A stretch of DNA of 64,000 bases from assembly GCF_003258595.1 (NCBI RefSeq), contig NZ_QHHQ01000001.1:806001-870000 (forward strand), in the 5' to 3' direction. Each line of letters opens with the position of its first letter. Position 1 is the first letter of the stretch. Of the stretch, positions 43,172-57,633 are shown one piece after another. The stretch is from Acuticoccus sediminis (lineage in GTDB: Bacteria > Pseudomonadota > Alphaproteobacteria > Rhizobiales > Amorphaceae). Below the pieces are notes generated by a model. That model did not search any database. It worked only from the letters and a program-made list of their open reading frames with translations, and was not told where the DNA came from. The position numbers were made by a program, and so were the translations under genes.

Positions 43172-43200
43172 CTGCTTAAGCTGCTTAAACGTTAAAGCAG
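43172..43200. promoter_or_regulatory. LacI-type operator between ABC operon and lacI-like gene
   Basis: Near-perfect 20-bp palindrome CTGCTTAAACGTTAAAGCAG at 43181-43200, centred on AACGTT, with one mismatched pair in each arm. An extra half-site CTGCTTAAG lies directly to its left. The central CG is typical of LacI-family operators. It can control both divergent units. Confidence 0.7.
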
Positions 43201-43328
43201 GGTGTGATCCCTGTCCAGACGGCGGGAGCCCTGTCCAGACGGCTCTGGCGGTGGGACTGCTATGCGCATGGGTCGGTCGCGGGCCGCCGGCGCCTTGGGG
43301 ACGATGGGCCGGGAAGCGGGAGGAACGC

Positions 43329-44366
43329 GTGCCGGGACGGGGAAGCCGCCAGCCGGGAAGACGGGTCGGGCTGAAGGACATCGCCCGTGCGGCGGACGTG
43401 TCGCCGGCCGCGGTGTCCTACGCGCTGAACGGGACGGGGCGGCTCGAGGAGGGGACGCGCCAGCGCATCATCGGCATCGCCAAGGCGCTCGGCTACCGGG
43501 CGAACGCGAACGCCCGCAACCTGCGGCGCCGCACGTCCGGTGTCCTGACGATCGCGGCATCCGTGCCGCCGGGGCTCGCCAGCATGCTGCCGGCGATGGA
43601 CTACGTGATGGCGATCTGGCAGGCGGCGGCCGCGGCGTCGCTGAAGCGGGGCTTCATGCTGCTGCTGCTGCCGTTCGGCGTGGAATCTGGCGAGCTCGCG
43701 GGGATCCCGGTCGACGGCGGCATCGTCGTCGACCCGGTCAAGGACGATCCCCTGCTGCGCCACTTCGCCAGGACGGACGCGCCGGTGGTGACGATCGGGC
43801 GGGATCTCGCGCGCCCGGCCGAGGCGTCCTGGTGGGTGGACAACGACCACGACGCGCTGGTGACCATGGCGCTGGAGCACCTCAGGTCCCGTGGGGCGCG
43901 CCGGGTCGGGGCGGTGCTGGCGGGGACGGGGTACGCCTACACGCTGGCCTACCGCCGGGCGTACGAGGCATGGTGCGCCTCCGTCGGCCAGGCGCCGATG
44001 CTGGTCGCGGTGGACGAGCCGGCGACCGAGTCGGCGGGCTACAACGCGGCGACGGGGCTGCTGGACCGGTGCGACCCGCCGGACGCGATCTTCGCCTCGC
44101 TCGACCGCTTCGCGGTGGGGGCGCTGTTCGCGGCGGCGGCACGGGGGCTCGCGGTGCCGGACGACCTGATGATCGTCTCCGGCAACGACGGGGTGGCGAC
44201 GCGCTCTGCGACGGTGCCGGTCACGGCGCTGGACCTGTCGCCGGCGGAGCTGGGGCGGATCGCGGTCGACATGCTGATCGACCGTATCGAGGGGGCCGAC
44301 GCGCCCAGGCATGTGATCGTCCCGGGCCACCTCGAGCCCCGCGCATCGACGGCTCGCGGAGGGTGA
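43329..44366 (+). CDS. LacI-family regulator of the ABC/amidohydrolase operon
   Basis: 345 aa regulator. The helix-turn-helix is GLKDIARAADVSPAAVSYALNGTGRLEEGTRQRI near the N-terminus, with the hinge helix ANARNLRRRTSGVLTI. The periplasmic-binding-protein-like core follows (DDLMIVSGNDGVATRSATVPVTALDLSPAELG). The GTG at 43329 is set by GGGAGG with a 5-nt gap. Inferred targets are the divergent binding-protein/permease/amidohydrolase operon and itself, through the operator at 43172-43200. The site differs from the WTTGMATR sites of the other LacI protein nearby. Confidence 0.9.
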   Translation: MPGRGSRQPGRRVGLKDIARAADVSPAAVSYALNGTGRLEEGTRQRIIGIAKALGYRANANARNLRRRTSGVLTIAASVPPGLASMLPAMDYVMAIWQAAAAASLKRGFMLLLLPFGVESGELAGIPVDGGIVVDPVKDDPLLRHFARTDAPVVTIGRDLARPAEASWWVDNDHDALVTMALEHLRSRGARRVGAVLAGTGYAYTLAYRRAYEAWCASVGQAPMLVAVDEPATESAGYNAATGLLDRCDPPDAIFASLDRFAVGALFAAAARGLAVPDDLMIVSGNDGVATRSATVPVTALDLSPAELGRIAVDMLIDRIEGADAPRHVIVPGHLEPRASTARGG

Positions 44367-44398: not shown

Positions 44399-44416
44399 AT
44401 TGCATACGCATTTAAG
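44399..44416. promoter_or_regulatory. LacI regulon site A
   Basis: ATTGCATA-CG-CATTTAAG, 8+2+8 layout with CG centre. The left half fits WTTGMATR well and the right half weakly. It lies 33 nt after the stop of the first lacI-like gene and about 150 nt upstream of the SDR promoter. Confidence 0.5.
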
Positions 44417-44563
44417 GCTGGGCAGGATGTCGCTGGAAGTCGGTTCCCGGAGCCTGGTCGTGATATGGTAGTGATAGGGGCGGGGTGCCGATCGAATGGC
44501 CACTTCCCGTCTACTTTGACGATAATCCGAGCAGCTGGCATGGCCGTCGCCTAGATTATCGGT

Positions 44564-44592
44564 TTGACAAAACTAGATGCCTGATTAAGTTT
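44564..44592 (+). promoter_or_regulatory. Possible sigma70 promoter of the SDR gene
   Basis: Perfect -35 TTGACA at 44564-44569. The best -10 candidates are weak (TAAGTT, 44586-44591, 16-nt spacer). Operator-like site A2 overlaps the -10 region, which suits repression. Confidence 0.5.
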
Positions 44593-44607
44593 GCATGCCT
44601 ATGCAAA
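44590..44607. promoter_or_regulatory. LacI regulon site A2
   Basis: TTTGCATG-CC-TATGCAAA: same 8+2+8 layout and half-sites as the other sites but with CC in the centre. It overlaps the -10 region behind TTGACA at 44564. Confidence 0.6.
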
Positions 44608-44834
44608 ATTGGCGTGGTGCGGGTTTCGGTGAGGCGTGACGCTGGGGGCGGAGTGATGGTGCGGGGCGGGCCGGATAGCGGGACGATCGTGACGGGCCGG
44701 CGCGCCACCTGCCGCTCGGCGTCGGCCCTTGCCGGCATCCGCCCCGATGGCGCCCGTCGCGACGCGCCAATCGCGGTGGTGGCGAAGGCGCCGCCCCGTC
44801 GCGTCCAGCTCCAGCCGGCACGGGGCGCGCGGAA

Positions 44835-45578
44835 TTGAACCCGTTTCCGGGGCGGTTCGCCGGCCGGGTGATCGTCGTCACCGGTGGCGGCAGCGGGCCG
44901 GGCCTCGCGACCGCCGAACTGCTCGCGGCCGAGGGCGCGAGCGTGGTCGCCATCGACCTCGCGTTCGGCGACACAAGCTGCGGGGCGGCCCTTCGCTTCG
45001 CCGCCGACGTGTGCGATCGGGCGCGGCTCGATGCGATCGCGTGCGAGGTGCGGGACGCGGTCGGCGCGGTCGACGGGCTGGCGACGTTCGCCGGGATCGC
45101 TCGGCCCGGCGGGATCGAGGACGTCGCGCCGGAAGACTGGCGGCGCGTGCTCGACGTCAACGTCGTCGGTTCGGCGAACGCCGTGGCGGCATTCCTGCCG
45201 GACCTGTCATCGGTGCCGGGCGCGTCGGTCGTGCTGTGTTCCTCGCAGGTGTCGCTCGGCGGGGCGAGCAACTGCGTCGCCTACGCGGCTTCCAAGGGGG
45301 CGATCAACGCCATGTGCCGCTGCCTCGCCGTCGACCATGCGGACAGCGGGATCCGCGTGAACGCCGTCGCGCCGGGACCGGGCGAGACGTCCGTGATGGC
45401 GCGTGCATCGGCATGCGAATCCCCGGGGAACATGGCGCGGACACGGGCCCAACCGGCGCTGGGGCGGTTCGGCACGGCAGGCGAAACCGCCGCCGCGGCG
45501 GCCTTTCTCCTCAGCGAGGAGGCGAGCTTCATCACCGGCACGGTATTGCCGGTCGACGGCGGGTGGTCGTTCTCCTGA
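44835..45578 (+). CDS. Short-chain dehydrogenase/reductase
   Basis: 247 aa NAD(P)-dependent oxidoreductase of the classical SDR type. It has the cofactor motif TGGGSGPG (TGxxxGxG), AIDLAF with an acidic residue after strand 2 that favours NAD, NVVGSANAV, the catalytic serine in VVLCSSQVS and YAASK with the catalytic Tyr and Lys, and a C-terminal FITGTVLPVDGGW. It oxidises an alcohol or reduces a ketone of unknown identity. The start appears to be TTG 44835; a GTG at about 44868 would cut into the first strand. It is the first gene of the putative LacI regulon, with sites A and A2 upstream and B directly after its stop. Confidence 0.87.
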   Translation: MNPFPGRFAGRVIVVTGGGSGPGLATAELLAAEGASVVAIDLAFGDTSCGAALRFAADVCDRARLDAIACEVRDAVGAVDGLATFAGIARPGGIEDVAPEDWRRVLDVNVVGSANAVAAFLPDLSSVPGASVVLCSSQVSLGGASNCVAYAASKGAINAMCRCLAVDHADSGIRVNAVAPGPGETSVMARASACESPGNMARTRAQPALGRFGTAGETAAAAAFLLSEEASFITGTVLPVDGGWSFS

Positions 45579-45583
45579 GCAGA

Positions 45584-45601
45584 ATTGAATTCGTATTCAA
45601 A
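45584..45601. promoter_or_regulatory. LacI regulon site B
   Basis: ATTGAATT-CG-TATTCAAA: both halves match WTTGMAT around a CG centre. It lies 6 nt after the SDR stop and about 300 nt before the LacI start, so it may serve as an auxiliary operator for looping. Confidence 0.7.
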
Positions 45602-45877
45602 TCCTCGCGCAGCGGCATTGCGAGCTGCGTCAGGCGCTTTGGGCGGACGCTGCCCGAGCAGAATCGGCCGCCCCGACAAGAAGTTCTTGTCATTTGCAGG
45701 CGAACGATACCTCGGTCGCGAAGGCACGGATATCGGGACGGAATTCGGCAGGCTGGCCAATCCACCCTTGCAACGTCGCGCCGGAACGGCCACCGGACCC
45801 ATGCAAATCCCTATAAACGAAAAGTTTCATTGCCATCGTGGGCAGCAGTGATTAGCTGAACGTTCCTCGAACCACGC
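45602..45877. other. Intergenic region before the LacI gene
   Basis: No gene recognised. It contains a perfect 17-bp dyad at 45675-45691, a lone half-site ATGCAAAT at 45801-45808 and a -10-like TATAAA at 45812-45817 without a good -35. Confidence 0.5.
45675..45691. promoter_or_regulatory. Perfect 17-bp dyad of unknown use
   Basis: GACAAGAA-G-TTCTTGTC, a perfect inverted repeat in the SDR-lacI gap. It does not match the WTTGMATR half-site, so a second regulator or an RNA hairpin is possible. Confidence 0.4.
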
Positions 45878-45895
45878 AGTGCATGCGAATGCGGA
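45878..45895. promoter_or_regulatory. LacI regulon site E (autoregulation)
   Basis: AGTGCATG-CG-AATGCGGA: a weaker match with the CG centre and TGCAT-like cores, ending 3 nt before the LacI start codon and covering its ribosome site. Confidence 0.4.
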
Positions 45896-45898
45896 GCC

Positions 45899-46981
45899 AT
45901 GGGGACGATGGCGAAGAAATCGATCCGCACCACGTCGTTTGACGTGGCGGCCCTTGCCGGGGTGTCTCAGTCGGCCGTCTCGCGTGCGTTCACGCCCGGG
46001 TCCAGCATCAAGGCGACCACCCGGGACAAGATTCTCGAAGCCGCCCGCAAGCTGAACTACGTCCCGAACTCCATTGCAAGCAGCTTGACGAAGAACCGGT
46101 CCAGCATCGTCGCCGTGATCCTCGGCACGTTGTCGAACCCGTTCTACGTTCACACGCTCCACGCCTTCAGCCAGGAGCTGCAGAAGCTCGGCCGGCAGAC
46201 CCTGACCCTCACCCTGTCCGACACGATGGACACCGACGAAGCCATCCTGAAGGTGCTTCAGTACCAGGTGGAGGCGGTGATCCTGACGTCGGCCCAGCTT
46301 TCGACGCGGATGATCAACCTGTGCCATGACCGCGGCATCCCGGTGGTGCTCTTCAACCGCTACATCCCGCACAGCGACGTCTACGGCGTACGCTGCGACA
46401 ACGTCTCCGGCGGCCGGATGGTCGCCGACGCGTTCCTTGCCGCGGGCGCGCGCTCGTTCATGATGATCACCGGCGAGGCGAACGGCAGCACCAGTCAGGA
46501 TCGCGTGCGCGGTTTCGTCGAGCGGGTCCTCGAGGCCGGCATCCCGCGCAGCGCAATCTCGAGCTACCCCGGCCTTCGCTCGTACGAGGGCGGAGCGGCG
46601 GCCGTCGACATGCACGTCGCGGCCGGGCACGAGATTCCGGACGCGATCTTCGGGATCGCCGACGTGATGGCGATGGGGGCGATGGACGCGCTGCGGTACC
46701 GCTACGGCAAGCGCGTGCCCGAGGACGTGATGGTCGCGGGTTTCGACGGGATTCCGGAGGGCGGGCGGCCGCCCTACCAGCTCACCACGGTGCGCCAGCC
46801 GGTCGCCGAGATGGTGACCGAGACACTGAACCTCCTCAACTTCGACGGCGCGCGCGAGCCGGAGGAGCTGACGCGGGACCGCCCGATCGCCGGCGAGATG
46901 ATCTGGCGCGCGACCGTTCCGCGCCCGGCCCGCGCGGAGCCGGCGCCCGTCGCGGTGGCGCCGGAGGCCTCGGCCGGCTGA
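45899..46981 (+). CDS. LacI-family regulator of the catabolic locus
   Basis: 360 aa regulator. The helix-turn-helix is TTSFDVAALAGVSQSAVSRAF near residues 11-30, followed by the hinge NYVPNSIASSLTKNRS. The effector core includes ILGTLSNPFYVHTLHAFSQ, VVLFNRYI and a C-terminal VMVAGFDGIPEGGRPPYQLTTVRQP, all LacI/GalR-like. ATG 45908 is an alternative start. The gene sits inside the cluster whose promoters carry WTTGMATR-CG operator-like sites, and one such site covers its own start region. I infer that it represses the locus until a pathway intermediate binds. It is convergent with the FAD dehydrogenase gene, 27 nt away. Confidence 0.93.
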   Translation: MGTMAKKSIRTTSFDVAALAGVSQSAVSRAFTPGSSIKATTRDKILEAARKLNYVPNSIASSLTKNRSSIVAVILGTLSNPFYVHTLHAFSQELQKLGRQTLTLTLSDTMDTDEAILKVLQYQVEAVILTSAQLSTRMINLCHDRGIPVVLFNRYIPHSDVYGVRCDNVSGGRMVADAFLAAGARSFMMITGEANGSTSQDRVRGFVERVLEAGIPRSAISSYPGLRSYEGGAAAVDMHVAAGHEIPDAIFGIADVMAMGAMDALRYRYGKRVPEDVMVAGFDGIPEGGRPPYQLTTVRQPVAEMVTETLNLLNFDGAREPEELTRDRPIAGEMIWRATVPRPARAEPAPVAVAPEASAG

Positions 46982-47008
46982 TTCGCCGGCCCGGGAGCCC
47001 GGCGGCCC

Positions 47009-48436
47009 TCAGGCGTCCGCCATCGCCGCGTCGCCGACGAGCTCGGCCGCCGCCCTGCCCGCCAGCATGCCGAGCGTGATCGCCGTGCAGAGGCCGGCGG
47101 CGGGCAGGTAGCCGTCGCAGCCGCTGCCGGAGATGCTCTCCGCCGTACCGCCGCTCGCGAAGAGGTTCGGGAGGGGCGAGCCGTCCTCGCGCACCACCCG
47201 CGCCGTCCCGTCGATCTTGAGGCCGCCCTGGGTATGGAACAGCGCGCCCGTCGTGCGGATCGCATGAAGCCGCCCGGAGAGCGGCGGGTTGCGGGTGAAG
47301 TCGCGGCCGAAGGGGCAGGGGACCTCGCCCTTCGCCATCCGCTGCGTCTCGGCGATGGTCGCCTCCAGCGCCTCCGCCGGCACCTTGATGAGCTCGGCGA
47401 GGGCGCCGGCGTCCCCGGCCGTGCGGACGACGTTGAGCGCCTTGAGCTCGCGGAATTCCGGCAGGTCCTCGCAGGTCGCGCGCCGGGCGTCGTCGAAGAT
47501 CACCCAGCCGATGCCCTCCGGCTGCTGGAGCGTGTTGAGCGACTGGGCGGAGATGTCCTTCACCTCGTTCGAGTAGCGCCTGCCTTCCAGGTTCACCATG
47601 ATCCCGCCGTTCATGATCGGGTCGTAGTTGCAGATCACGCCGGCGGATTCGACCAGCGCGCCGTACCCCTGGAACGCGTCCATCGAGCCCACGGCCGCGC
47701 CGAGCGCCATGCCCCACTCGATGCCTTCGCCCTCGTTCCCCTCGTGGCCGAAGTACTTGTAGTAGGGCGCCTCGCCGAATGAAGGGATGAAGCGCCTCAC
47801 CATCCCGGCGTTGGCGCCGAAGCCGCAGGTGGCGAGGATGAGCGCCTTGCAGCCGATCGTCTCGACGGCGCCGTCCGCGCGGGTGACGCGCACGCCCGCG
47901 ACGCGCCCCTCGGCGTCGGCGTAGACCGTGTCGACGTGGGCACCGGTGACGATGTCGGCGCCGGCCGCCTCGGCCGCGCGCATCATCGTGTCGTGGAGTT
48001 CCTTGCCGGTCTTGGACGGGACGCCGTGCAGGCGGTTCACCGTATGGCCGAAGAAGCCGCCCCAGGAGAGGTCGAGGCGGAAGGGAATGCGGAACCGGTC
48101 GACCAGCCAGTCGATCGCCGGGCCGCAATTGTCCGCGACGGTGCGGGACACGCCGGTGTCGGCGGTACCCTTGCTGCGGGCCATGATGTCCCGGTAGAGG
48201 GCCTCCGCGTCGTCCTCGATCCCGTTCTCGCGCTGCAGCCTGGTGCCGGCGGCGCAGACGTTCCCCTGCGACATGCATGTGCTGCCGTAGGGGACCACGT
48301 CGCGCTCGAGGAGGAGGGTGCCCGCGCCGCTGTCGCAGGCGGCGAGAGTGGCCGCGAGTCCTGCCGCCCCGGCGCCGACGACGACCACGGGGACTTCGAT
48401 GTCGAACTCGGGGATCGACCTGTCCACACCCGTCAT
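47009..48436 (-). CDS. FAD-dependent dehydrogenase, fumarate reductase-like
   Basis: 475 aa flavoprotein of the FAD_binding_2 family (fumarate reductase, 3-ketosteroid dehydrogenase and tricarballylate dehydrogenase group). It has the dinucleotide motif VVVVGAGAAGLAATLAA, then LLLERD, STCMSQGNVCAAGT, ALILATCGFGANAGMVRRF, GGLKIDGTARVV, and a C-terminal LFASGGTAESISGSGCDGYLPAAGLCTAITLGMLAGR. Such enzymes add or remove a C=C bond next to a carboxylate or ketone. The ATG at 48436 has AAGG upstream. Its promoter appears to be at 48789-48817 with operator site C on the -10, giving a leader of about 350 nt. Confidence 0.88.
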   Translation of the reverse strand: MTGVDRSIPEFDIEVPVVVVGAGAAGLAATLAACDSGAGTLLLERDVVPYGSTCMSQGNVCAAGTRLQRENGIEDDAEALYRDIMARSKGTADTGVSRTVADNCGPAIDWLVDRFRIPFRLDLSWGGFFGHTVNRLHGVPSKTGKELHDTMMRAAEAAGADIVTGAHVDTVYADAEGRVAGVRVTRADGAVETIGCKALILATCGFGANAGMVRRFIPSFGEAPYYKYFGHEGNEGEGIEWGMALGAAVGSMDAFQGYGALVESAGVICNYDPIMNGGIMVNLEGRRYSNEVKDISAQSLNTLQQPEGIGWVIFDDARRATCEDLPEFRELKALNVVRTAGDAGALAELIKVPAEALEATIAETQRMAKGEVPCPFGRDFTRNPPLSGRLHAIRTTGALFHTQGGLKIDGTARVVREDGSPLPNLFASGGTAESISGSGCDGYLPAAGLCTAITLGMLAGRAAAELVGDAAMADA

Positions 48437-48774
48437 TATTGAGCCTTCATGTTGTTGATCTGATGGTGGGGCGCCCGGCGCGCGCGGGCCGGGGCCCGAA
48501 CCGCGGTGCCCTCGGGCGGCGCCGCAGTGCACCATGCCGGGCGGTTCCGGGAGAGGGTGACGCGGAGGGTATCCCGGCAGGCGCGCCCTGCCGCGACTTC
48601 TCGCCGATGCCCGGGCGGTGCGGGCGACGCACTGCCCGGTCCCACCCGCGGCCGCCCACCGGGTTGCCGCCGCCGGGCAGGCGCGGCGGCATCCCGGCGG
48701 TACCCTCTCGCGGGCATGTGCGGCACGGTGAGCGTTGGGTGGGGTAAGTGCGCATCGAGCGCCCTTGCGACCGA
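48437..48774. other. Long GC-rich leader of the FAD dehydrogenase gene
   Basis: About 340 nt between the FAD gene start and operator C. I see no convincing gene. A minus-strand frame of 126 codons crosses it but would begin upstream of the predicted transcription start and has no recognisable sequence. Confidence 0.5.
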
Positions 48775-48792
48775 TTTGAATACGAATTCATA
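48775..48792. promoter_or_regulatory. LacI regulon site C
   Basis: TTTGAATA-CG-AATTCATA, good match to the half-site on both sides. It overlaps the -10 of the minus-strand promoter for the FAD dehydrogenase gene. Confidence 0.75.
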
Positions 48793-48817
48793 ATCGACGT
48801 GCCGCAGCGGGTGTCAA
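48789..48817 (-). promoter_or_regulatory. Sigma70 promoter toward the FAD dehydrogenase
   Basis: On the minus strand a perfect -35 TTGACA (48817-48812), a 17-nt spacer and ATTATG (48794-48789); TATGAA two bases on is an alternative -10. The -10 is covered by operator site C. Confidence 0.6.
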
Positions 48818-48909
48818 GCGGCTTCATCTCCGGGCGGAAACGATGCCTTCGCGCATCTCGGGATCACCGAGGCGTCGCGATATTTGTCCCGCGCGGCCCA
48901 AGTTTCGCG

Positions 48910-48938
48910 TTGACACTCTCGCGAGGCGCTCATTGAAT
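48910..48938 (+). promoter_or_regulatory. Sigma70 promoter toward the prpD-like operon
   Basis: Perfect -35 TTGACA (48910-48915), a 17-nt spacer and -10 TTGAAT (48933-48938). Operator site D starts on the base before the -10, a classic repression layout. Transcription should start near 48945, which rules out the ATG at 48937 as a start codon. Confidence 0.7.
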
Positions 48939-48949
48939 GCGAATTCAAT
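48932..48949. promoter_or_regulatory. LacI regulon site D
   Basis: ATTGAATG-CG-AATTCAAT, the most symmetric of the seven sites. It covers the -10 of the plus-strand promoter and part of the start region. Confidence 0.8.
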
Positions 48950-49026
48950 ATGGTCGAAGCGGCGCGGCCGGACTGCCGCTCCGCCGCGGCCGAGGCGCCG
49001 GCGCACCCGCTTGTCGAGAGTTACGC

Positions 49027-49476
49027 ATGACCGCTTTCGCCCTGACCCAGGACGCCATCGATCCGCTGCTCGACACGCTGCTCCCCGGGAGCGACTTCCT
49101 TCCGCCCGCCTCCTGCACCGGCACCGGCGCGGAGGTCCTGATGAGCGCCAAGGGCGTGGATGCCGCCCGCGCCATCCTCGCCGCGCTGCCGCCGGACTTT
49201 GCCGACCTCGCGACGCCCGGCCGCGCCGCCGCCGTCCGCGAGGTCGCAAGGCTCTGCGGCGCCGTTCAGGCTCTGGTCGAAGTCGCGCATCGCGCCTACT
49301 ACTCCGATCCGGACGTGTCGGCGGCGGTGGCCCGGCTCGCCGCGTACCGTCATCCTCCCCGGCCGGCGGGACCGGAGATGCCGCCCTTCGATCCGTCGAT
49401 CCTCGACACCGTCCGAAAGGCGGCCCCCGCCTGGCGAGACCCCAGACCAGCAACCCCGGACGACAACGCGCGATGA
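49027..49476 (+). CDS. Small protein coupled to MmgE/PrpD gene
   Basis: 149 aa cytoplasmic-looking protein with no signal peptide or membrane helix. The segment LTQDAIDPLLDTLLPGSDFLPP, with a later GVDAARAILAALPPDFADL, faintly recalls gluconate 2-dehydrogenase subunit 3-type small subunits that pair with FAD dehydrogenases, but I am not sure. The C-terminus is proline-rich. The ATG at 49027 has GAGAG upstream and lies about 80 nt after the predicted transcription start. Its stop overlaps the next start as ATGA. If the likeness is real, its partner could be the divergent FAD dehydrogenase under the same repressor. Confidence 0.7.
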   Translation: MTAFALTQDAIDPLLDTLLPGSDFLPPASCTGTGAEVLMSAKGVDAARAILAALPPDFADLATPGRAAAVREVARLCGAVQALVEVAHRAYYSDPDVSAAVARLAAYRHPPRPAGPEMPPFDPSILDTVRKAAPAWRDPRPATPDDNAR

Positions 49477-50858
49477 GTGACACAGAGAACCCGCTCCCCT
49501 GGCTGACGGACCGCGTCGTCGGGACCTCCTACGGGGACCTGACCCCCGCCTCGATCGAGAAGGCCAAGACCTTCCTGCTCGACACGTTCGGGGTCGGCGT
49601 CGCCGGCTGCCACGGCTACCGGATCGACAGGATCGTCAAGGTGGCGTCCGGGTGGGGCGCAGGCGAGGAAGCGCGCGTCTGGGTTTCCGGCGAGACGCTG
49701 CCGGCCGGTGGCGCCGCCTTCGTCAACGCCTACCAGATCCACAGCCTGGAGTATGACTGCGTCAACGAGGACGCCGTGCTGCACCCGATGGCGACGCTGC
49801 TCTCCGCCGTCATGGCTTACTGCGAGCGCCGCTCGCGCCAGGGGCGGCCGGTCAACGGGCGCGACTTCCTGGCCGCGGTGGTGATGGGCGTCGACGTCTC
49901 GATCTTTCTCGGCAAGGCCTCCACCGGGCCGATCCGCTTCTTCCGCCCCGCCGCCGCCGGCGGCTTCGGCGCCGCCGCCGCGCTGGCCAAGCTGGAAGGC
50001 TTCGACGCGACGCGCATGACGCAGACGCTGGGCAACCAGTACGGCCAGTCCTGCGGGACGCTGCAGCCGCACGTGGAGGGCTCGCCGATGCTGGGCATGC
50101 AGGTCGGCTTCAACGCCCGCGCGGCGCTGGCGGCGGCCGACTTCGCCGCCGAGGGCGTGCTCGGACCGGAGGACGTGCTGACCGGGCGCTACGGCTACTT
50201 CCGCCTGTTCGAGAACGATGACTTCGACGTCGCCCACGGCAAGGCCGAGCTGGAAGCCGCGTTCCAGATGGAGCGCATGTCCCACAAGCCCTACCCGTCG
50301 GGCCGCCTCACGCACGGCGTCGTCGACGGGCTCGGCCGCCTCATCGCCGCGCACGGCTTCGCGCCGGACGACATCGCGACGATCACCGCGACCGTTCCGC
50401 AGCTCGTCAACCGCCTCGTCGGCCGGCCGGACATTCCGGAGCCGGCGCCGAACTACGCCAAGCTGTGCCTGCCGTTCGTCGCCGGCACCTTCCTCAACCA
50501 CGGCGTGGTGGACGTCGACGAATTCATCGGCCCCGAGAAGCTGAACGACCCGCGCACCCACGACTTCGCCGCGCGCGTCACCGTCATCCAGGACGACAAC
50601 CCGAGCCACAGCGCGATGACGCCGCAGACGATCGCCGTCACGCTGAAGAACGGCGCGTCTCACAGCGTCGTCCTCGAGGCGGTCTACGGGCACGCCGACA
50701 ACCCGCTGTCGCGCGAGGAGAATCTCGACAAGTTCCGCCGCTGCTGGTCCCGCGTGCCGCAGCTCGCGCCGGAGAAGGGCGAGGAGCTGATCGGCGTCGT
50801 CGACGCCTTCGAGACGCTGGACGACGTCGCCGACGTCGTGCGCTATCTGGTCGCCTGA
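49473..50858 (+). CDS. MmgE/PrpD-family dehydratase 1
   Basis: 461 aa protein of the MmgE/PrpD superfamily, which includes 2-methylcitrate dehydratase and cis-aconitate decarboxylase. Typical parts are AKTFLLDTFGVGVAG near the start, NAYQIHSLEYDCVNEDAVLHPMATLL (active-site region, with Cys-Val-Asn where PrpD has Asp-x-His), AAAGGFGAAAALAKLEGFD, SHKPYPSGRLTHGVVDGL and a C-terminal GHADNPLSREENLDKFRR. It probably (de)hydrates or decarboxylates a carboxylated intermediate. It is translationally coupled to the small protein upstream. A paralogue lies at 56221-57633, on the other side of hyuAB. Confidence 0.9.
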   Translation: MSDTENPLPWLTDRVVGTSYGDLTPASIEKAKTFLLDTFGVGVAGCHGYRIDRIVKVASGWGAGEEARVWVSGETLPAGGAAFVNAYQIHSLEYDCVNEDAVLHPMATLLSAVMAYCERRSRQGRPVNGRDFLAAVVMGVDVSIFLGKASTGPIRFFRPAAAGGFGAAAALAKLEGFDATRMTQTLGNQYGQSCGTLQPHVEGSPMLGMQVGFNARAALAAADFAAEGVLGPEDVLTGRYGYFRLFENDDFDVAHGKAELEAAFQMERMSHKPYPSGRLTHGVVDGLGRLIAAHGFAPDDIATITATVPQLVNRLVGRPDIPEPAPNYAKLCLPFVAGTFLNHGVVDVDEFIGPEKLNDPRTHDFAARVTVIQDDNPSHSAMTPQTIAVTLKNGASHSVVLEAVYGHADNPLSREENLDKFRRCWSRVPQLAPEKGEELIGVVDAFETLDDVADVVRYLVA

Positions 50859-50867
50859 CCGGGCCGC

Positions 50868-50889
50868 CGCCTCCGGCCCGCCGGAGGCG
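50868..50889. terminator. Hairpin between convergent prpD-like and lyase genes
   Basis: Perfect 9-bp stem CGCCTCCGG/CCGGAGGCG with a 4-nt loop between two convergent genes. No T-run on either side. Confidence 0.45.
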
Positions 50890-50906
50890 CCGCCGGCACG
50901 GCGGCC

Positions 50907-51788
50907 TCAGTCGTTGGCTGGCCCGGTGGGCTTGCCCCACTTGCGCTCGAACGCCCACACCTCCTCGAAGCCGATCAGCGAGTTGAACTCCTTGAAGGAG
51001 AACAGCGGGACGTCGGGCGACTGCGAGGTGCCGAGCGTCCTGAACGCATTGAACACCGCTTCGGCGGCGTGGGCGGCCGCAAGGCCCGTCGCGGCGGGAT
51101 AGATCGCCATGTCGTAGCCGATCTCCTTCAGCTCGGAGGCGCTGCGGATCGGGGTGAGGCCGCCGTCCGCCATGTTGGCGAGCGTGGGCTTGTCGAGCCG
51201 GCGGCAGGCCTCGCGCATCTCCTCGTCGCTGACGAGCGCCTCGATGAAGAGGACGTCGGCGCCGGCCTCCCCATAGGCGACGGCCCGCTTCACGGCGCCC
51301 TCGAAGCCCTCTGACTGGCGCGCGTCGGTGCGGGCGATGATGAAGGTGTCCGGATTCCTGCGGGCGTCGCAGGCGACCTTGATCTTGTCGACCATGTCCT
51401 CGACCGGGATCAGGCGCTTGAAGGGCGTGTGGCCGCACTTCTTCGGGAACTCCTGGTCCTCGATCTGGATCGCGGTGACCCCGGCCTCCTCGTAGCCGAT
51501 GACGGTGTGGTGCACGTTGAGGAGCCCGCCGTACCCGGTGTCGGCGTCGGCGATGACGCCGGCGTTCACCATGGTGCACAGCGTGCGCACGCGGTCGACC
51601 ATCTGCGTGTAGGTGGCGATCCCGGCGTCGGGGAGGCCATAGGCCGAGGCGGTCATCCAGTAGCCGGACGCGTAGGCGAAATCGAGGCCGCTCCTGTTGA
51701 ACACGGCGGCGGCGATCATGTCGTGGACCCCCGGGGCGACGACGAACTCGCCTGCCGCGAGAGCCGCCTTCAGTGTCGGTTTTGCCAT
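50907..51788 (-). CDS. Isocitrate lyase/PEP mutase family C-C lyase
   Basis: 293 aa TIM-barrel enzyme close to 2-methylisocitrate lyase (PrpB) and 2,3-dimethylmalate lyase. It has PGVHDMIAAAVFNRSG, YASGYWMTASAYGLPD, the metal-binding DADTGYGG near residue 85, IQIEDQEFPKKCGHTP near 116 with the KKCGH catalytic loop, and FIIARTDAR. Such enzymes split a 2-hydroxy acid into pyruvate (or glyoxylate) plus a carboxylic acid. The ATG at 51788 has a GAAGAAG site; an ATG at 51842 is less likely. It is divergent from hyuA across operator site F, so it probably belongs to the same regulon as the PrpD-like genes. Confidence 0.9.
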   Translation of the reverse strand: MAKPTLKAALAAGEFVVAPGVHDMIAAAVFNRSGLDFAYASGYWMTASAYGLPDAGIATYTQMVDRVRTLCTMVNAGVIADADTGYGGLLNVHHTVIGYEEAGVTAIQIEDQEFPKKCGHTPFKRLIPVEDMVDKIKVACDARRNPDTFIIARTDARQSEGFEGAVKRAVAYGEAGADVLFIEALVSDEEMREACRRLDKPTLANMADGGLTPIRSASELKEIGYDMAIYPAATGLAAAHAAEAVFNAFRTLGTSQSPDVPLFSFKEFNSLIGFEEVWAFERKWGKPTGPAND

Positions 51789-51972
51789 TCTTCTTCGATC
51801 CCTTTGCCGGAGGTGTGGCTGGCTGTGCGCCGCGTCTGACACCTCGTCATAGTCGGCGCCGCTTTCGAAGTGGTTGGCGCGCTATGGCCGGCTGCCATCC
51901 CGCCATGGCCTGCCCTCCCATGGCCGGCCGTGGCTCCCGGGCGGAATTCTTCGGCCGCCGATCCAATCACGC

Positions 51973-52000
51973 TTGCGCCACTTCAAGCTGAGATTATAGT
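51973..52000 (+). promoter_or_regulatory. Sigma70 promoter toward hyuAB
   Basis: TTGCGC (51973-51978), a 16-nt spacer and TATAGT (51995-52000), five of six matches in the -10. The expected start, near 52007, falls within operator site F. Confidence 0.6.
51993..51998 (-). promoter_or_regulatory. TATAAT box toward the lyase gene
   Basis: Perfect TATAAT on the minus strand. A TTGCAT 15 nt upstream, inside operator F, could be its -35. Together with the opposite promoter it makes a face-to-face pair around site F. Confidence 0.5.
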
Positions 52001-52002
52001 TC

Positions 52003-52020
52003 GATGAATGCGCATGCAAT
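52003..52020. promoter_or_regulatory. LacI regulon site F
   Basis: GATGAATG-CG-CATGCAAT, fitting WTTGMATR on the right side and slightly weaker on the left. It lies between the divergent lyase and hyuA genes, over the start of one promoter and the -35 region of the other. Confidence 0.7.
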
Positions 52021-52061: not shown

Positions 52062-54116
52062 ATGAGGCTGGGTGTCGACGTCGGGGGAACCTTCACAGAC
52101 CTGCTCCTTCACGACGCCGCGACGCAACGCACCTACCAGGCCAAGACCCCGTCGACCCCCGAGGACCAGTCGATCGGCGTCGCCAACGGTGTGAAGCTCA
52201 TCTGCGAGAAGGCGGGCATCTCGCCGTCCGACATCTCGCTGATCCTCCACGGCACGACCGTGGCGACCAATGCGGTGCTGGAAGGCAAGGGTTCGCGCGT
52301 CGGCCTGCTTGTGACCGAGGGGTTCGAGTACACGCTGCACCTCGCCAAGTCCTGGACCCCGGGGCCGCTCTTCGGCTGGATCGTCATGGACAAGCCGGAG
52401 CCCCTCGCCGCGCTGGCCGACACGCGCGGCATCCCGGAACGGATGAACGCACGCGGCGAGGTGGTGAAGCCGCTCGACCGCGAGGCCGCGACCCGGCTGA
52501 TCGACGACCTCTGCTCCTCCGGCATCGAGGCGCTGACGATTTCGCTGATGCATTCCTATGCAAACCCGGATCACGAGCGCGTCCTCGCGCAGATCGTGAA
52601 GGCGCGGTACCCGGACATCCCGGTCTCGATCTCGTCGGAGATCCTGCCCGAGTTTCGGGAATACGACCGGGCGATCACAACGGTCATGAACGACTACGTC
52701 CGGCCGATCATGCGGCGGTACCTGTCGCGCATCGAGACCCGGCTCAAGGACGACGGCGTCCACGCGCGCCTCCATATCGTTCGCTCCGACGGCGGCCTGA
52801 TGAGCGCCGAGGCGGCGTCCGAGCGGCCGGTGCACACGGTGCTCTCCGGTCCCGCCGGCGGCGTGACGTCGACCGTGATGGTCGCCCGTCGCACCGGCCT
52901 CGGCAGACTTCTCGCCTTCGACATGGGCGGCACCTCCACCGACGTCTCCGTCGTCATCGACGGCGAGCCGACGATCTCCCGGTCGACCGAGGTCGGCTAC
53001 TTCCCCGCCAAGGTCCCGACGCTCGACGTGCGCTCGGTCGGGGCCGGCGGCGGCTCCATCGCCGAGGTCTCCGAACTGACCAGCTCGTTGCGCGTCGGCC
53101 CCCGCAGCGCCGGCGCGCGCCCCGGCCCCGTCGCCTACGGCCGCGGCGGCACCGAACCCACGGTGTCGGACGCCAACGTGGTGCTCGGCTACCTGCCGCC
53201 GGTTCTCCTCGGCGGCGACATGTCGCTCGACGTCGAAGGCGCCCGCGCCGCCGTCTCGAAGGTCGGCGAGGCGCTCGGACTGTCGCCGGAGGGCGCCGCG
53301 CAGGGGATCATCGACATCGCCAACGAGGTGATGCTCGGCGCCCTCCGCGTCATCACGGTGCAGCGCGGACTCGACCCGCGTGACTTCGGCATCGTCGCCT
53401 TCGGCGGCGCCGGCCCGCTCCACGCCAACGCGCTGGCCGAGCTTCTCGGCTGCTATCCGGTGGTCGTCCCGGCCAACCCCGGCGTCCTGTCGGCACTCGG
53501 CTTCCTGGAGTCGGAGTTCAAGAACGAGTTCGTGCAGACCTTCATCCGCTCGACCAAGGCGCTCGACGCGGCGGACGTGTGGGCCCGCTTCGACGCGCTG
53601 GCCGAGAAGGCGGCGCACTGGCTCGAGGAGGAGAAGGTGGCTCCGCAGGACCGCCACCTGCAGTTCTCGGTCGACCTGCGCTACGAGCAGCAGGGCTTCG
53701 AGGTGACGATCGACCTCGACGGGGACGTGATCGCCGGGAAGGCCAGCCTGGAGGCCGTGTTCGACAAGTTCCACGCCACCCACGAGCGGCTCTACGGTGT
53801 GCGCTTCCATGTGCCGGTCGAGCTCGTGGCGCTGCGGGTCGTCGCGACCGGCGCCACGACCCCGGTGGAGGAGGCCGCCGCGATCACCGGAGGCCCGGCG
53901 GCCGAGGCGATCATCGAGACGCGCCCGAGCTACTTCAACGGTGAGTGGGTGGAGACGCCGAACGTCGACCGCGCGCGGCTCGCCATCGGCGAGCGGGTCG
54001 CCGGCCCCGCCATCATCCGCCAGTACGACACGACCACCGTCCTTCTCCCGGATCATTACGCGGAGGTCGACCCGCACGGAAACCTCCTGATCTGGCCGAA
54101 CGCGAAGGGGAACTGA
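52062..54116 (+). CDS. hyuA: Hydantoinase/oxoprolinase subunit A
   Basis: 684 aa ATP-binding subunit of the HyuA family (N-methylhydantoinase A, 5-oxoprolinase and acetone carboxylase group). It starts MRLGVDVGGTFTDLLLHD, followed by LILHGTTVATNAVLEGKGSRVGLLVTEGF, FREYDRAITTVMNDYV, SGPAGGVTSTVMVA, LLAFDMGGTSTDVSV, SVGAGGGSIAEV and FGIVAFGGAGPLHA. The complex uses ATP to open or carboxylate a cyclic amide or ketone. The ATG at 52062 is used: it matches the family start, has a GGGGGATGG site, and lies after the predicted transcription start, unlike ATG 52008. hyuB follows after 1 nt. Confidence 0.93.
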   Translation: MRLGVDVGGTFTDLLLHDAATQRTYQAKTPSTPEDQSIGVANGVKLICEKAGISPSDISLILHGTTVATNAVLEGKGSRVGLLVTEGFEYTLHLAKSWTPGPLFGWIVMDKPEPLAALADTRGIPERMNARGEVVKPLDREAATRLIDDLCSSGIEALTISLMHSYANPDHERVLAQIVKARYPDIPVSISSEILPEFREYDRAITTVMNDYVRPIMRRYLSRIETRLKDDGVHARLHIVRSDGGLMSAEAASERPVHTVLSGPAGGVTSTVMVARRTGLGRLLAFDMGGTSTDVSVVIDGEPTISRSTEVGYFPAKVPTLDVRSVGAGGGSIAEVSELTSSLRVGPRSAGARPGPVAYGRGGTEPTVSDANVVLGYLPPVLLGGDMSLDVEGARAAVSKVGEALGLSPEGAAQGIIDIANEVMLGALRVITVQRGLDPRDFGIVAFGGAGPLHANALAELLGCYPVVVPANPGVLSALGFLESEFKNEFVQTFIRSTKALDAADVWARFDALAEKAAHWLEEEKVAPQDRHLQFSVDLRYEQQGFEVTIDLDGDVIAGKASLEAVFDKFHATHERLYGVRFHVPVELVALRVVATGATTPVEEAAAITGGPAAEAIIETRPSYFNGEWVETPNVDRARLAIGERVAGPAIIRQYDTTTVLLPDHYAEVDPHGNLLIWPNAKGN

Positions 54117-54117
54117 G

Positions 54118-55893
54118 ATGAAGACCGTCGATCCCATCACGCTCGACATCATCGAGAACGCGCTGAAGAACGCCCGCTTCGAGATGGACGGCGTCGTCGT
54201 GCGCATCGCCCTGTCGCCGGTGATCCGGGAGCAGCACGACGAGTTCCCGATGATCTGCAACGAGCGGGGGCAGATGATCGTCGGCCAGTTCGGCTCGTAC
54301 ATCCCGGCGATCGTCGAGAAGTTCCAGGGCGACCTCAACGAGGGCGACATCTTCGTCTGGAACGACCCCTACGCCTGCAAGGGCTCCATCTCGCACAACA
54401 ACGACTGGTGCGTGATGATGCCGATCTTCCACGAGGGGGTGCTGGTCGGCTTCTCCTCGATCTTCGGCCACATGGTCGACGTCGGCGGCAAGGTGCCGGG
54501 CTCGATGCCGGCCGATGCCTATTCGATCTGGGAGGAGGGGCTGCGCATCCCGCCGGTGCGCATCTACGACAAGGGCGTGCTGAACGCGGGTGTCCTCGAC
54601 ATCATGCTCAACAACACCCGCACGCCGGACATGAACCGCGCCGACCTGATGGCGCTGATCGCGGGCTGCCGGACCGCGGCGACGCGGGTGCGCGAGCTGT
54701 GCGACCGTTTCGGCCGCGATACCTACATGGCCGCGTGCGACATGCTGCTCGACCGCACCCACGAGGCGATGAAGGTCCTCATCGACAAGTACATCTCCGA
54801 GGAACCGGTCACGTTCACTGACTACGTCGACGACGACGGTGTCGGCAACGGCCCGTTCAAGATGACGCTGTCGATCTACAGGAAAGGCGACACGGCGGTC
54901 TTCGACTGGACCGGCACGGACCCGCAGGCGGAGGGCCCGATCAACTTCCATATCCACGAAGGGCTCTGCAAGCTCTTCTTTGGCGTCTACATGATCATGG
55001 CGTTCGACCCCTCGATCCTCTTCAACGAGGGGTTCTACGACCTGTTCGAGATCGTGCTCCCGGAGGGGAGCCTCCTCAATCCGCGCTTCCCCGCCGCGCT
55101 GTCGAACCGCCTCAACACGCACACGCGCTTCTTCGACTGCCAGGCCGGGGCGCTCGGCCAGCGCGCGCCGCACCTGTCGATGGCGGCGGGCTACGGGACG
55201 AGCCCGCACTTCATCTTCACCGGCCACGACCAGGACGGGAAATATTTCCAGCTGATGGAGCTCCTCTTCGGCGGCGTCCCCGGCCGCCCGCGCGGGGACG
55301 GCCTCGACGGCCACGCCTGGTGGCCTCTCTTCTCGGCGACGCCGATCGAGTACATCGAGAACTACTATCCCGTGCTGATCGAGAGCTACCGGCCGATCCG
55401 CGACTCCGGCGGGGCGGGGCTCCACCGTGGCGGCGCGGGCATCGCCAAGACCTATCGCCTTCTCGAAACCGGCAGGGTCTCGATCCATGACGACCGCGAG
55501 ATCGTCCCGCCCTGGGGGATCAACGGCGGCCTCTACGGCGGGACCTCGAGCAAGTGGATCGTGCGCAAGGCGACCGGCGAGACGGAGCGGATCCCCTCCA
55601 AGATCGACAACCTCGCGGTGGAGGCGGGCGACGTGGTGGTCTTCAACACCGCGGGCTCCGGCGGCTGGGGCGATCCGCTCGACCGACCGGCGGAGAGCGT
55701 CGCGCGGGACGTGCGCCACGACCTCGTCTCGCCGCAGGCGGCGCGGGACTTCTACGGTGTCGTCCTCACCCCCGCGAACGTGCCGGACGATGCCGCGACG
55801 GAGGCCCTTCGGGCGGACATGCGGACGAGGCGCGGCGAGCCGGAGCCCTTCAATTTTGGCTATGTCCCCGAGCAGGCGGAGGCCGCCGAGTAG
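54118..55893 (+). CDS. hyuB: Hydantoinase/oxoprolinase subunit B
   Basis: 591 aa catalytic partner of HyuA. It begins VDPITLDIIENALKNARFEMD as the family does, then VREQHDEF-like IREQHDEFPMICN, IFVWNDPYACKGSISHNNDW, SSIFGHMVDVGGKVPGSMPADA, DYVDDDGVG and a C-terminal GAGLHRGGAGIAKTYRL and TAGSGGWGDPLDRP. Together with HyuA it forms an ATP-dependent amidohydrolase or carboxylase whose true substrate cannot be told from sequence. AAGGGG precedes the ATG, which follows the hyuA stop by 1 nt. After its stop comes a long inverted repeat before the second PrpD-like gene. Confidence 0.93.
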   Translation: MKTVDPITLDIIENALKNARFEMDGVVVRIALSPVIREQHDEFPMICNERGQMIVGQFGSYIPAIVEKFQGDLNEGDIFVWNDPYACKGSISHNNDWCVMMPIFHEGVLVGFSSIFGHMVDVGGKVPGSMPADAYSIWEEGLRIPPVRIYDKGVLNAGVLDIMLNNTRTPDMNRADLMALIAGCRTAATRVRELCDRFGRDTYMAACDMLLDRTHEAMKVLIDKYISEEPVTFTDYVDDDGVGNGPFKMTLSIYRKGDTAVFDWTGTDPQAEGPINFHIHEGLCKLFFGVYMIMAFDPSILFNEGFYDLFEIVLPEGSLLNPRFPAALSNRLNTHTRFFDCQAGALGQRAPHLSMAAGYGTSPHFIFTGHDQDGKYFQLMELLFGGVPGRPRGDGLDGHAWWPLFSATPIEYIENYYPVLIESYRPIRDSGGAGLHRGGAGIAKTYRLLETGRVSIHDDREIVPPWGINGGLYGGTSSKWIVRKATGETERIPSKIDNLAVEAGDVVVFNTAGSGGWGDPLDRPAESVARDVRHDLVSPQAARDFYGVVLTPANVPDDAATEALRADMRTRRGEPEPFNFGYVPEQAEAAE

Positions 55894-56220: not shown

Positions 56221-57633
56221 TTGGATCACGCCCCGGAACCCGATCTCGATCCGATGCCGCATCTGGTGCGGCACGTCGCCGGCCTCGCCTATGACGATCT
56301 CCCGCCGTCGGCGGTGGCGGCGGCCAAGACGTTCACGCTCGATACGCTCGGGGTCGGCATCGCCGGCGCGAACGGGACCGGCGTCGACGCGCTGCGGGCG
56401 CTGGCGCAGACGTGGGGCGAGGGGCGGGAGGCGTCGGTGTGGGGGAGCGGCATCCGCCTTCCGGCGGCGACGGCGGCGTTCGTCAACGGCTACCAGGTCC
56501 ACTCGCTGGAGTACGACTGTGTCCACGAGCGGGCGGTGCTGCACCCGATGGCGGCCGTCCTCGGGGCGATGATGGCCGCGGCGGAGCGGCGTGTCGCGAG
56601 GGACGAGCCGCCGATCGACGGGAGGACCTTCCTCGCCGCCCTCGCCGGCGGGGTCGACTTCGCGACCTTTCTCGGCTTCGCGGCGCGAGGGCCGCTCCGG
56701 TTCTTCCGTCCGTCCACGGCGGGCGGGTTCGGGGCGGCTGCCGGTGTCGCACGCATGCTGGGCCACGACGAGGCGACGATCGCGAGCGCGCTGGGGATCC
56801 AGTACTCGCAGACGTCGGGGACCATGCAGCCGCACGTCGAGGGGTCGCCGTGTCTGGCGCTGCAGGTGGGACTGGCCGGGCGCGCCGGCCTCGTCAGCGC
56901 CGACCTCGCCGCGGCGGGCTTCAAGGGGCCGTCCGACATCCTGACCGGCCGCCACGGCTACTTCCGGCTGATCGAGCGGGACGCGTTCGACGTCGCGGCC
57001 GAGATCGGGCGCATCGGCCGGGAGTTCCAGGTGGAGGAGCTCGCCCACAAGCCGTTCCCCTCCGGGCGCCTCACCCACGGCACCGTCGACGCGCTGATGC
57101 AGTTCACGTCGCGCCTCGGGATCGGGGCGGACGATATCGCCGAGCTGCGCTGCCTCGTCCCGCCGGTGGTGTTCCGGCAGGTGGGCCGGCCGGACATTCC
57201 GGCGCCGGACCCCAACTATGCCAAGCTCTGCATCCCCTTCGTCGGCGCGACCTACCTCCGGCACGGCCGCGTGGACGTCGGCGAGTTCCTCGGCGAGGCG
57301 ATGCTGACCGACCCCAAGACGCACGAGATCGCGGCGCGCATCCGCGTCGAGGAGGACGGCAACCCCGACCAGAACGCGATGACGCCCCAGCGCTTCGTCC
57401 TGACGCTCACGGACGGGTCCAGGCACGAGCTGACGCTCGACCACGTCTACGGCCACCCCAGGTCGCCGCTGTCGGCCGCGGACAACGTCGACAAGTTCAT
57501 GCGCAACTGGGGGACGGTGCCGGGTCTCCCGGCCGGAAACGCGGAGCGGGTCGTGGAGCTGGTGGAGACGCTGGAGACGGTCGCCGACGTGACGGCGATC
57601 GCGCGCCTCATGGTCCCCGCCTCGGCGGCCTGA
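56221..57633 (+). CDS. MmgE/PrpD-family dehydratase 2
   Basis: 470 aa paralogue of the protein at 49473-50858. Shared segments include the AKTFTLDTLGVGIAG start, QVHSLEYDCVHERAVLHPMA, TAGGFGAAAGVARMLGHDE, GTMQPHVEGSPCLALQVGL, DILTGRHGYFRLIE and HKPFPSGRLTHGTVDAL. The active-site motif here is CVHE, against CVNE in copy 1, so the two may differ in substrate or one may be impaired. The start is TTG 56221, supported by AAGGAG with an 8-nt gap; an ATG at 56254 is the alternative. Probably cotranscribed with hyuAB unless the inverted repeat stops polymerase. Confidence 0.9.
   Translation: MDHAPEPDLDPMPHLVRHVAGLAYDDLPPSAVAAAKTFTLDTLGVGIAGANGTGVDALRALAQTWGEGREASVWGSGIRLPAATAAFVNGYQVHSLEYDCVHERAVLHPMAAVLGAMMAAAERRVARDEPPIDGRTFLAALAGGVDFATFLGFAARGPLRFFRPSTAGGFGAAAGVARMLGHDEATIASALGIQYSQTSGTMQPHVEGSPCLALQVGLAGRAGLVSADLAAAGFKGPSDILTGRHGYFRLIERDAFDVAAEIGRIGREFQVEELAHKPFPSGRLTHGTVDALMQFTSRLGIGADDIAELRCLVPPVVFRQVGRPDIPAPDPNYAKLCIPFVGATYLRHGRVDVGEFLGEAMLTDPKTHEIAARIRVEEDGNPDQNAMTPQRFVLTLTDGSRHELTLDHVYGHPRSPLSAADNVDKFMRNWGTVPGLPAGNAERVVELVETLETVADVTAIARLMVPASAA

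What the first reader, a model, noticed from the sequence alone, without database searches (positions are those of the whole stretch)
44399..52020. Seven LacI-type operator-like sites define a local catabolic regulon
Seen: seven 18-bp sites of 8+2+8 layout at 44399, 44590, 45584, 45878, 48775, 48932 and 52003. Most of the 14 half-sites fit WTTGMATR, and the centre is CG in six and CC in one. They lie at the promoters or ends of the SDR gene, the LacI gene, the FAD dehydrogenase, the prpD-like operon and the divergent lyase/hyuA pair. Known: LacI-family proteins bind such CG-centred palindromes. Inference: the LacI protein at 45899-46981 controls all these units as one regulon. I noticed no further copies elsewhere in the window, but I could not scan it by computer.
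Basis: partly seen in the sequence, partly recalled or inferred. Interest (0 to 1): 0.75.

Follow-up and report, generated by a model that had tools for sequence, protein, structure and literature searches.

The report
LacI repressor regulon for catabolic cluster
A set of near-identical short palindromes at the promoters of a degradation gene cluster are very probably the binding sites of one repressor protein encoded in the cluster, and related bacteria keep a similar arrangement; it is a new, well-supported example of an ordinary kind of gene control.

Summary
The seven 18-bp sites are real and, as a set, far beyond chance. In the 7.76-Mb genome all 5 places within one mismatch of TTGMATRCGYATKCAA lie in this cluster (iid expectation 0.11). 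An eighth site lies inside hyuA (52547-52564). In seven other genomes with a related LacI (45-77% identity) the motif clusters around that gene: over all eight genomes 21 of 24 places with at most one mismatch are within 18 kb of it. LacI proteins with the same recognition helix often carry the motif beside their gene (7 of 14, against 2 of 80 others). A perfect TTGACA lies 21-31 bp from 13 of 42 sites (0.4-0.6% of control positions), so operators cover the -10 region: simple repression. The divergent FAD/prpD double operator keeps a 154-157 bp spacing in three genomes. The neighbouring LacI at 43260 has a different palindrome upstream. The inducer is unknown, perhaps a non-sugar acid or cyclic amide. 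New member of a known kind; nothing was tested at the bench.

The parts
44399..44416 (.). operator-like site ATTGCATACGCATTTAAG, upstream of SDR gene, starting 33 bp after the end of the first LacI gene
   Evidence: 1 mismatch in genome scan
44590..44607 (.). operator-like site TTTGCATGCCTATGCAAA (CC centre); perfect TTGACA at 44564-44569
   Evidence: the same 18 bases occur at L005 2933 in N. galegae, also with TTGACA upstream
45584..45601 (.). operator-like site ATTGAATTCGTATTCAAA, between SDR stop and lacI; best matrix score in the window
45878..45895 (.). weak operator-like site AGTGCATGCGAATGCGGA, ending 3 nt before the lacI ATG, on the ribosome-binding region
   Evidence: weak site (15.2) ending 9 nt before the lacI ATG also in N. 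galegae (L005 9974)
48775..48792 (.). operator-like site TTTGAATACGAATTCATA at the FAD-gene promoter (minus strand; TTGACA with first base at 48817)
   Evidence: (2 mismatches)
48932..48949 (.). operator-like site ATTGAATGCGAATTCAAT covering the -10 region of the orf149-prpD promoter (TTGACA 48910-48915)
52003..52020 (.). operator-like site GATGAATGCGCATGCAAT between divergent lyase and hyuA
   Evidence: sites just upstream of the hyuA homologue in all seven relative clusters (in G349 that hyuA is only 48% identical)
   Evidence: 18 of 5000 synonymous shuffles of hyuA reach it; same codons in N. galegae hyuA
45899..46981 (+). LacI-family protein, proposed repressor of this regulon (recognition helix SQSAVSR)
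44835..45578 (+). short-chain dehydrogenase (start codon uncertain)
47009..48436 (-). FAD-binding dehydrogenase (flavocytochrome-c-like, below NCBIfam cut-off); longer start at 48535 possible
49027..49476 (+). 149-aa protein with no Pfam or NCBIfam match, first gene of the prpD unit; 41% homologue beside PrpD1 in N. galegae
49473..50858 (+). MmgE/PrpD-family protein
50907..51842 (-). PEP-mutase/isocitrate-lyase superfamily lyase (best NCBIfam methylisocitrate lyase, 258.1 bits, below cut-off 354.4)
52062..54116 (+). HyuA-like hydantoinase/oxoprolinase
54118..55893 (+). HyuB-like hydantoinase/oxoprolinase
56221..57633 (+). second MmgE/PrpD-family protein; probable distal gene of the hyuAB unit (inferred from order)
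   Evidence: 73% homologue in the N. galegae cluster

Best explanation
The LacI-family protein at 45899-46981 binds NTTGMATNCGNATKCAAN palindromes and represses its own cluster: SDR, itself, the divergent FAD/orf149-prpD pair and the divergent lyase/hyuAB(-prpD2) pair. At the promoters where a -35 box can be recognised, the operator covers the -10/start region, so a bound dimer blocks RNA polymerase; an inducer from the pathway releases it. The operator against the lacI ribosome-binding region is weak, which fits mild autoregulation. Further operators (44399, 45584, the intragenic 52547) are probably auxiliary sites that strengthen repression. Shown here: sites, conservation, helix-motif association, promoter geometry. 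Inferred: binding, repression, an inducer that is a non-sugar intermediate (acid or cyclic amide/imide), and the role of auxiliary sites.
For: Genome scan: 5 of 5 places with <=1 mismatch in the cluster (iid expectation 0.11). Seven relatives: places with <=1 mismatch within 18 kb of the related lacI: 3/3 (G061), 2/2 (G137), 2/2 (G228), 2/2 (G334), 2/4 (G349), 3/4 (G122), 2/2 (G088). The other two of G349 sit at a GMC oxidoreductase and a dipeptide-type ABC unit whose homologues (70-85%) belong to operator-led units of the N. galegae cluster. QSAVSR-helix LacIs: 7 of 14 have a site scoring >=18 within 1 kb, others 2 of 80, both SQPTVSR. Perfect TTGACA 21-31 bp from 13 of 42 sites v 0.4% of 5200 random positions and 0.6% of 11307 intergenic positions away from sites; 3 of the only 5 TTGACA in the window serve these sites. 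Divergent double operator spaced 157/154/156 bp in window, N. galegae, G349. The adjacent LacI has another palindrome upstream, 43181-43200.
Against: No binding or expression data. Site 45878 scores no better than chance on its own. Seven of 14 QSAVSR LacIs have no site >=18 within 1 kb, the 77% orthologue among them (its weak site scores 15.2; its stronger sites are farther off). Eight other places with 2 mismatches exist in the genome against 2.7 expected in all; two lie between genes near other hyu genes. One place with 1 mismatch in G122 (contig 6) is unexplained. Only 3 of 8 window sites have a perfect -35. No counterpart of 45584 was seen between SDR and lacI of N. galegae. The relatives share ancestry, so neither the Fisher p-value (1e-5) nor the counts rest on independent events.
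Confidence: 0.88

Rival explanations
1. The sites are bound by the neighbouring LacI protein (43260-44366) or by both LacI proteins.
For: Site 44399 starts 33 bp after that gene, and it also is a LacI-family protein.
Against: Its recognition helix is SPAAVSY, not SQSAVSR. It was among the query proteins (E<=1e-20, best label per ORF shown) and labelled no ORF in the related clusters; L136, L137 and L108 had no ORFs called there. Its own upstream region holds a different CG-centred palindrome, 43181-43200.
Confidence: 0.06
2. The LacI protein at 45899 binds the sites but acts as an activator, or as a mixed regulator, at some units.
For: Sites 44399 and 45584 are not on a recognisable -10 region; PckR, a LacI-family regulator, is predicted to act both ways (PMC4052901, passages seen).
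Against: Where a -35 box is recognisable the operator lies on the -10/start region, where a bound protein blocks polymerase.
Confidence: 0.12
3. The intragenic site in hyuA is a by-product of the conserved peptide HSYANP and has no role (this concerns the eighth site only).
For: The peptide's codons can form the motif. Five orthologous hyuA genes at 74-83% identity lack it (scores 0.2-12.2), and a 41% hyuA homologue scores 15.2. The shuffle test also gives few hits at a weak site: SDR, best score only 10.5, 5 of 5000.
Against: Synonymous shuffles reach the observed score in only 18 of 5000 (window) and 23 of 5000 (N. galegae). G137, G334 and G228 instead have an intragenic site in the divergent leuC-like gene (8, 16 and 2 of 5000). 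Thirteen genes were tested in all, FAD once in a wrong frame and then again, so the evidence is moderate.
Confidence: 0.4

Closest known systems
LacI-family local regulons of Ravcheev et al. 2014 (PMC4052901; passages seen, supplements not available)
   Same: Even palindrome with CG centre, sites at promoters of neighbouring genes and of the regulator's own gene, local regulon
   Different: There 176 of 182 orthologous groups with an assigned pathway control carbohydrate metabolism and under 1% of sites are in coding regions; here the genes are hyuAB, prpD, lyase, SDR and FAD enzymes, and one site is intragenic. Whether this group is in their supplementary tables could not be checked
TVSR recognition code of LacI proteins (Camas et al. 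2010, PMC2978694; passages seen)
   Same: Recognition-helix residues go with operator bases
   Different: This protein has AVSR, outside the TVSR group on which the code was built
E. coli lac O1/O2 arrangement (recalled; the lacZ site is also mentioned in a passage of PMC4052901)
   Same: Promoter operator plus an operator some hundreds of bp inside the first gene
   Different: This LacI ends in an Ala/Pro-rich tail with no evident leucine heptad (read by eye), so lac-type tetramer looping is not indicated

Membership tests
LacI-family transcription factor | LacI HTH domain plus periplasmic-binding-protein-like core | tested here: met
   PF00356 45.3 bits (cut-off 27), PF00532 77.3 (22.2), PF13377 76.2 (26.5)
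Known NCBIfam LacI equivalogs (RbsR, GntR, CcpA, PurR ...) | score above curated cut-off | tested here: not met
   best NF047341 150.9 bits v cut-off 382; none of 21 listed families reaches its cut-off
LacI-type operator | even palindrome of 16-22 nt with CG centre | tested here: met
   18 nt; CG in 6 of 7 listed sites, CC in 44590 and in 52547; definition from PMC4052901
LacI-type local regulon | sites beside the regulator and neighbouring units, conserved with related regulators | tested here: met
LacI-type local regulon | autoregulation | tested here: inconclusive
   weak site just before the lacI start in window and N. galegae; strong sites upstream of lacI in G137, G228, G334, G349, G122, G088, which in the first four may serve the divergent transporter
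LacI-type local regulon | binding of the protein to the sites and release by an effector | not testable with these tools
   needs protein
lac-type looping repressor | C-terminal tetramerisation helix | tested here: not met
   tail read by eye only: Ala/Pro-rich, no leucine heptad

The most novel reading that the evidence does not exclude
A subfamily of LacI repressors with the SQSAVSR helix controls non-sugar catabolism: uptake plus breakdown of a cyclic amide/imide or branched dicarboxylate through hyuAB, hydratase, lyase and, in N. galegae, a RutA-type ring-opening monooxygenase. It uses auxiliary operators written into coding sequence by synonymous codon choice, placed in hyuA in some lineages and in the divergent leuC-like gene in others.
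Probability: 0.3. Interest if true: 0.5.

Novelty: new member of a known kind. Interest (0 to 1): 0.4.

Why it matters
It ties genes of unassigned function (hyuAB, two prpD genes, a lyase, an FAD dehydrogenase, several transporters in relatives) into one co-regulated set, so the pathway and the repressor's inducer can be searched for together. It also suggests a helix-to-operator rule for a LacI group outside the TVSR code, which would let sites be predicted in other genomes.

Tried and rejected
Considered and rejected: chance palindromes; control by the neighbouring LacI; a genome-wide global regulon (no place with <=1 mismatch outside the cluster). Of the 42 other places in the genome (8 with 2 mismatches, 34 with 3), 13 were looked at in context: all 8 with 2 mismatches and 5 of the 34 with 3 (my own simple ORF caller). 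Five lie inside predicted genes, two overlap a predicted first codon, six lie outside predicted genes. C1:927193 (upstream of a second hyuA) and C1:1695026 (between hyuB and a transporter operon) look like candidates because of their neighbours; the other 29 places were not looked at. Helical phasing of paired sites gave no clear rule. Paper searches: searches had no hits; (six exact palindrome words) gave two unrelated papers; one search listed 13 papers and seven, of which I looked into two (PMC4052901, PMC2978694, passages only). In one search the FAD gene was shuffled in a wrong frame (end off by one); one search repeats it correctly (430 of 1000). Other genes of the window: lyase 54, LacI 224, HyuB 341, PrpD1 925, PrpD2 969 of 1000 shuffles reach their best score; G137 hyuA 704 of 5000. 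My ORF caller gave no genes for the lower-GC loci L136, L137 and L108, so the gene next to the third G122 site is unknown.
Full report
What was checked. The seven sites were read directly. A symmetrised matrix made from the seven sites ranks them 1-6 and 8; rank 7 is a site not listed, 52547-52564, inside hyuA. In leave-one-out scoring every site stays in the top 8. Site 45878 is weak: its leave-one-out score of 12.8 is about the mean best score of 60 shuffled windows (12.5, maximum 19.0; scored with the full matrix), so it stands on position and on a like-placed site in N. galegae.

Whole genome. The window lies in a 7.76-Mb draft (44 contigs). For TTGMATRCGYATKCAA with up to 3 mismatches there are 49 palindromic places v 33 for the reversed pattern. 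With at most one mismatch there are 5, all in the cluster; nine have exactly two, one of them in the cluster. An iid model at 70% GC expects 0.002, 0.106, 2.7 and 43 places with 0, 1, 2 and 3 mismatches. So the good sites are local, matches with 3 mismatches are mostly background, and those with 2 are somewhat in excess.

Which protein. Two LacI genes are adjacent. The one at 45899 has the recognition helix SQSAVSR, the one at 43260 SPAAVSY. Among 94 distinct LacI homologues in hand whose match covers the helix (own copies removed), 7 of 14 with QSAVSR have a site scoring >=18 within 1 kb, against 2 of 80 others; these two (L124, L125) are 45-47% relatives with SQPTVSR (Fisher p 1e-5, not corrected for kinship). 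Upstream of the 43260 gene lies a different CG-centred palindrome, CTGCTTAAAC/GTTAAAGCAG at 43181-43200, a likely operator for that protein.

Relatives. Related LacI proteins were found in Neorhizobium galegae DS1499 (77%), in 4 genomes at 61-64% and in 2 at 45-46% (7 of 397 genomes of the order at E<=1e-75, own included; at most five candidates per genome scored). Places with at most one mismatch within 18 kb of that lacI: G061 (N. galegae) 3/3, G137 2/2, G228 2/2, G334 2/2, G349 2/4, G122 3/4, G088 2/2. With the window's 5/5 this makes 21 of 24. The two remaining of G349 are at a second locus (L170) with a GMC oxidoreductase and a dipeptide-type ABC transporter, homologous (70-85%) to genes of operator-led units in the N. 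galegae cluster; a third site (20.1) is there too. One place in G122 (contig 6) is unexplained. Counts with <=2 mismatches, site pattern v reversed control: G061 14 v 2; G137, G228, G334, G349 7, 4, 2, 9 v 0 each; G122 16 v 4; G088 18 v 6. Of the 14 of G061, 9 lie on contig 10 between 41424 and 89029.

Regulon content. Window: SDR, lacI, FAD dehydrogenase, a 149-aa protein without family, PrpD, lyase, HyuA, HyuB, PrpD2. In N. galegae sites also precede a unit that begins with LeuCD-like hydratase genes (NCBIfam cut-offs met) and holds the lyase (84%), a transporter with a Peripla_BP_4 binding protein, TRAP (DctP) units, a unit with an SBP_bac_5 binding protein, and a TRAP unit that ends with a RutA (TIGR03612, 616.9 bits v cut-off 498.3) and a hydrolase with weak, sub-cut-off RutB and biuret-amidohydrolase hits (unit limits inferred from gene order). 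These enzymes point to a non-sugar compound, perhaps a cyclic amide or imide that ends as a branched C4-C6 dicarboxylate split by the lyase. This is inference. In the window's genome the four LeuC-like homologues (53-61%; C7, C8, C1:18764, C2) and the RutA homologue (73%; C11) lie far from the cluster, with no place of <=3 mismatches within 20 kb; LeuD was not searched.

How it works. TTGACA occurs 5 times on both strands of the window, and three of these are 22-26 bp from sites 44590, 48775 and 48932. Over the window (its 8 sites) and 12 relative loci (sites >=18), 13 of 42 sites have a perfect TTGACA at 21-31 bp, against 0.4% of 5200 random positions and 66 of 11307 (0.6%) intergenic positions away from sites. 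With 5 of 6 bases or better it is 19 of 42 v 13%. The operator thus covers the -10 region. The divergent pair 48775/48932 has outward promoters and a spacing of 157 bp; it is 154 in N. galegae (where transporter and other genes come first in both units) and 156 in G349. The weak operator abuts the lacI start (3 nt in the window, 9 nt in N. galegae). This fits repression by blocking polymerase; release by a pathway metabolite is inferred.

Intragenic sites. The hyuA site is at the same codons in N. galegae (score 25.8). Synonymous shuffles reach the observed maximum in 18 of 5000 and 23 of 5000. Five other orthologues (74-83%) lack it. G137, G334 and G228 have instead a site inside the divergent leuC-like gene, 578-593 bp from the promoter operator (8, 16 and 2 of 5000). 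So the hyuA site is not forced by the protein, but a role is unproven. Against over-reading: SDR has a weak internal match (45402-45419, score 10.5) that also beats most shuffles (5 of 5000), while six other window genes show nothing notable (54-969 of 1000 shuffles reach their best score). Ravcheev et al. 2014 (PMC4052901, passages seen) report under 1% of LacI-family sites in coding regions.

Verdict. The paper searches made showed no account of this motif or regulon in what I saw of them; supplementary tables were out of reach.

Noticed in passing
43181-43200: Different CG-centred palindrome CTGCTTAAACGTTAAAGCAG between the first LacI gene (43260-44366) and the divergent solute-binding-protein gene (41948-43060); likely operator of that LacI.
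   Followed up: partly
45402-45419: Weak internal match CGTGCATCGGCATGCGAA in the SDR gene (score about 11) that 5 of 5000 synonymous shuffles reach.
   Followed up: partly
L138 7193-7210 (genome contig 1, 927193): Site TATGCATGCGTATTCGAA (score 22.8) about 310 bp upstream of a second, 37% identical hyuA in the same genome; possible distant member of the regulon.
   Followed up: partly
L139 10026-10043 (genome contig 1, 1695026): Weaker site (18.2) between a hyuAB pair and a transporter operon.
   Followed up: partly
L127 8707-9801: RutA-type monooxygenase above its NCBIfam cut-off in a TRAP-transporter unit under two operators in N. galegae.
   Followed up: partly
L109: Five sites scoring >=18 of the same motif around a 39% identical SQSAVSR LacI, with two proteins that look histidinol-dehydrogenase-like by eye and a transporter: perhaps a sister regulon.
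   Followed up: no
L108 2853-2916: Three sites in tandem at 23-bp spacing (scores 28.0, 16.6, 27.6) next to a 41% identical LacI.
   Followed up: no
49027-49476: 149-aa protein with no Pfam or NCBIfam match, with a 41% homologue beside PrpD in N. galegae.
   Followed up: no
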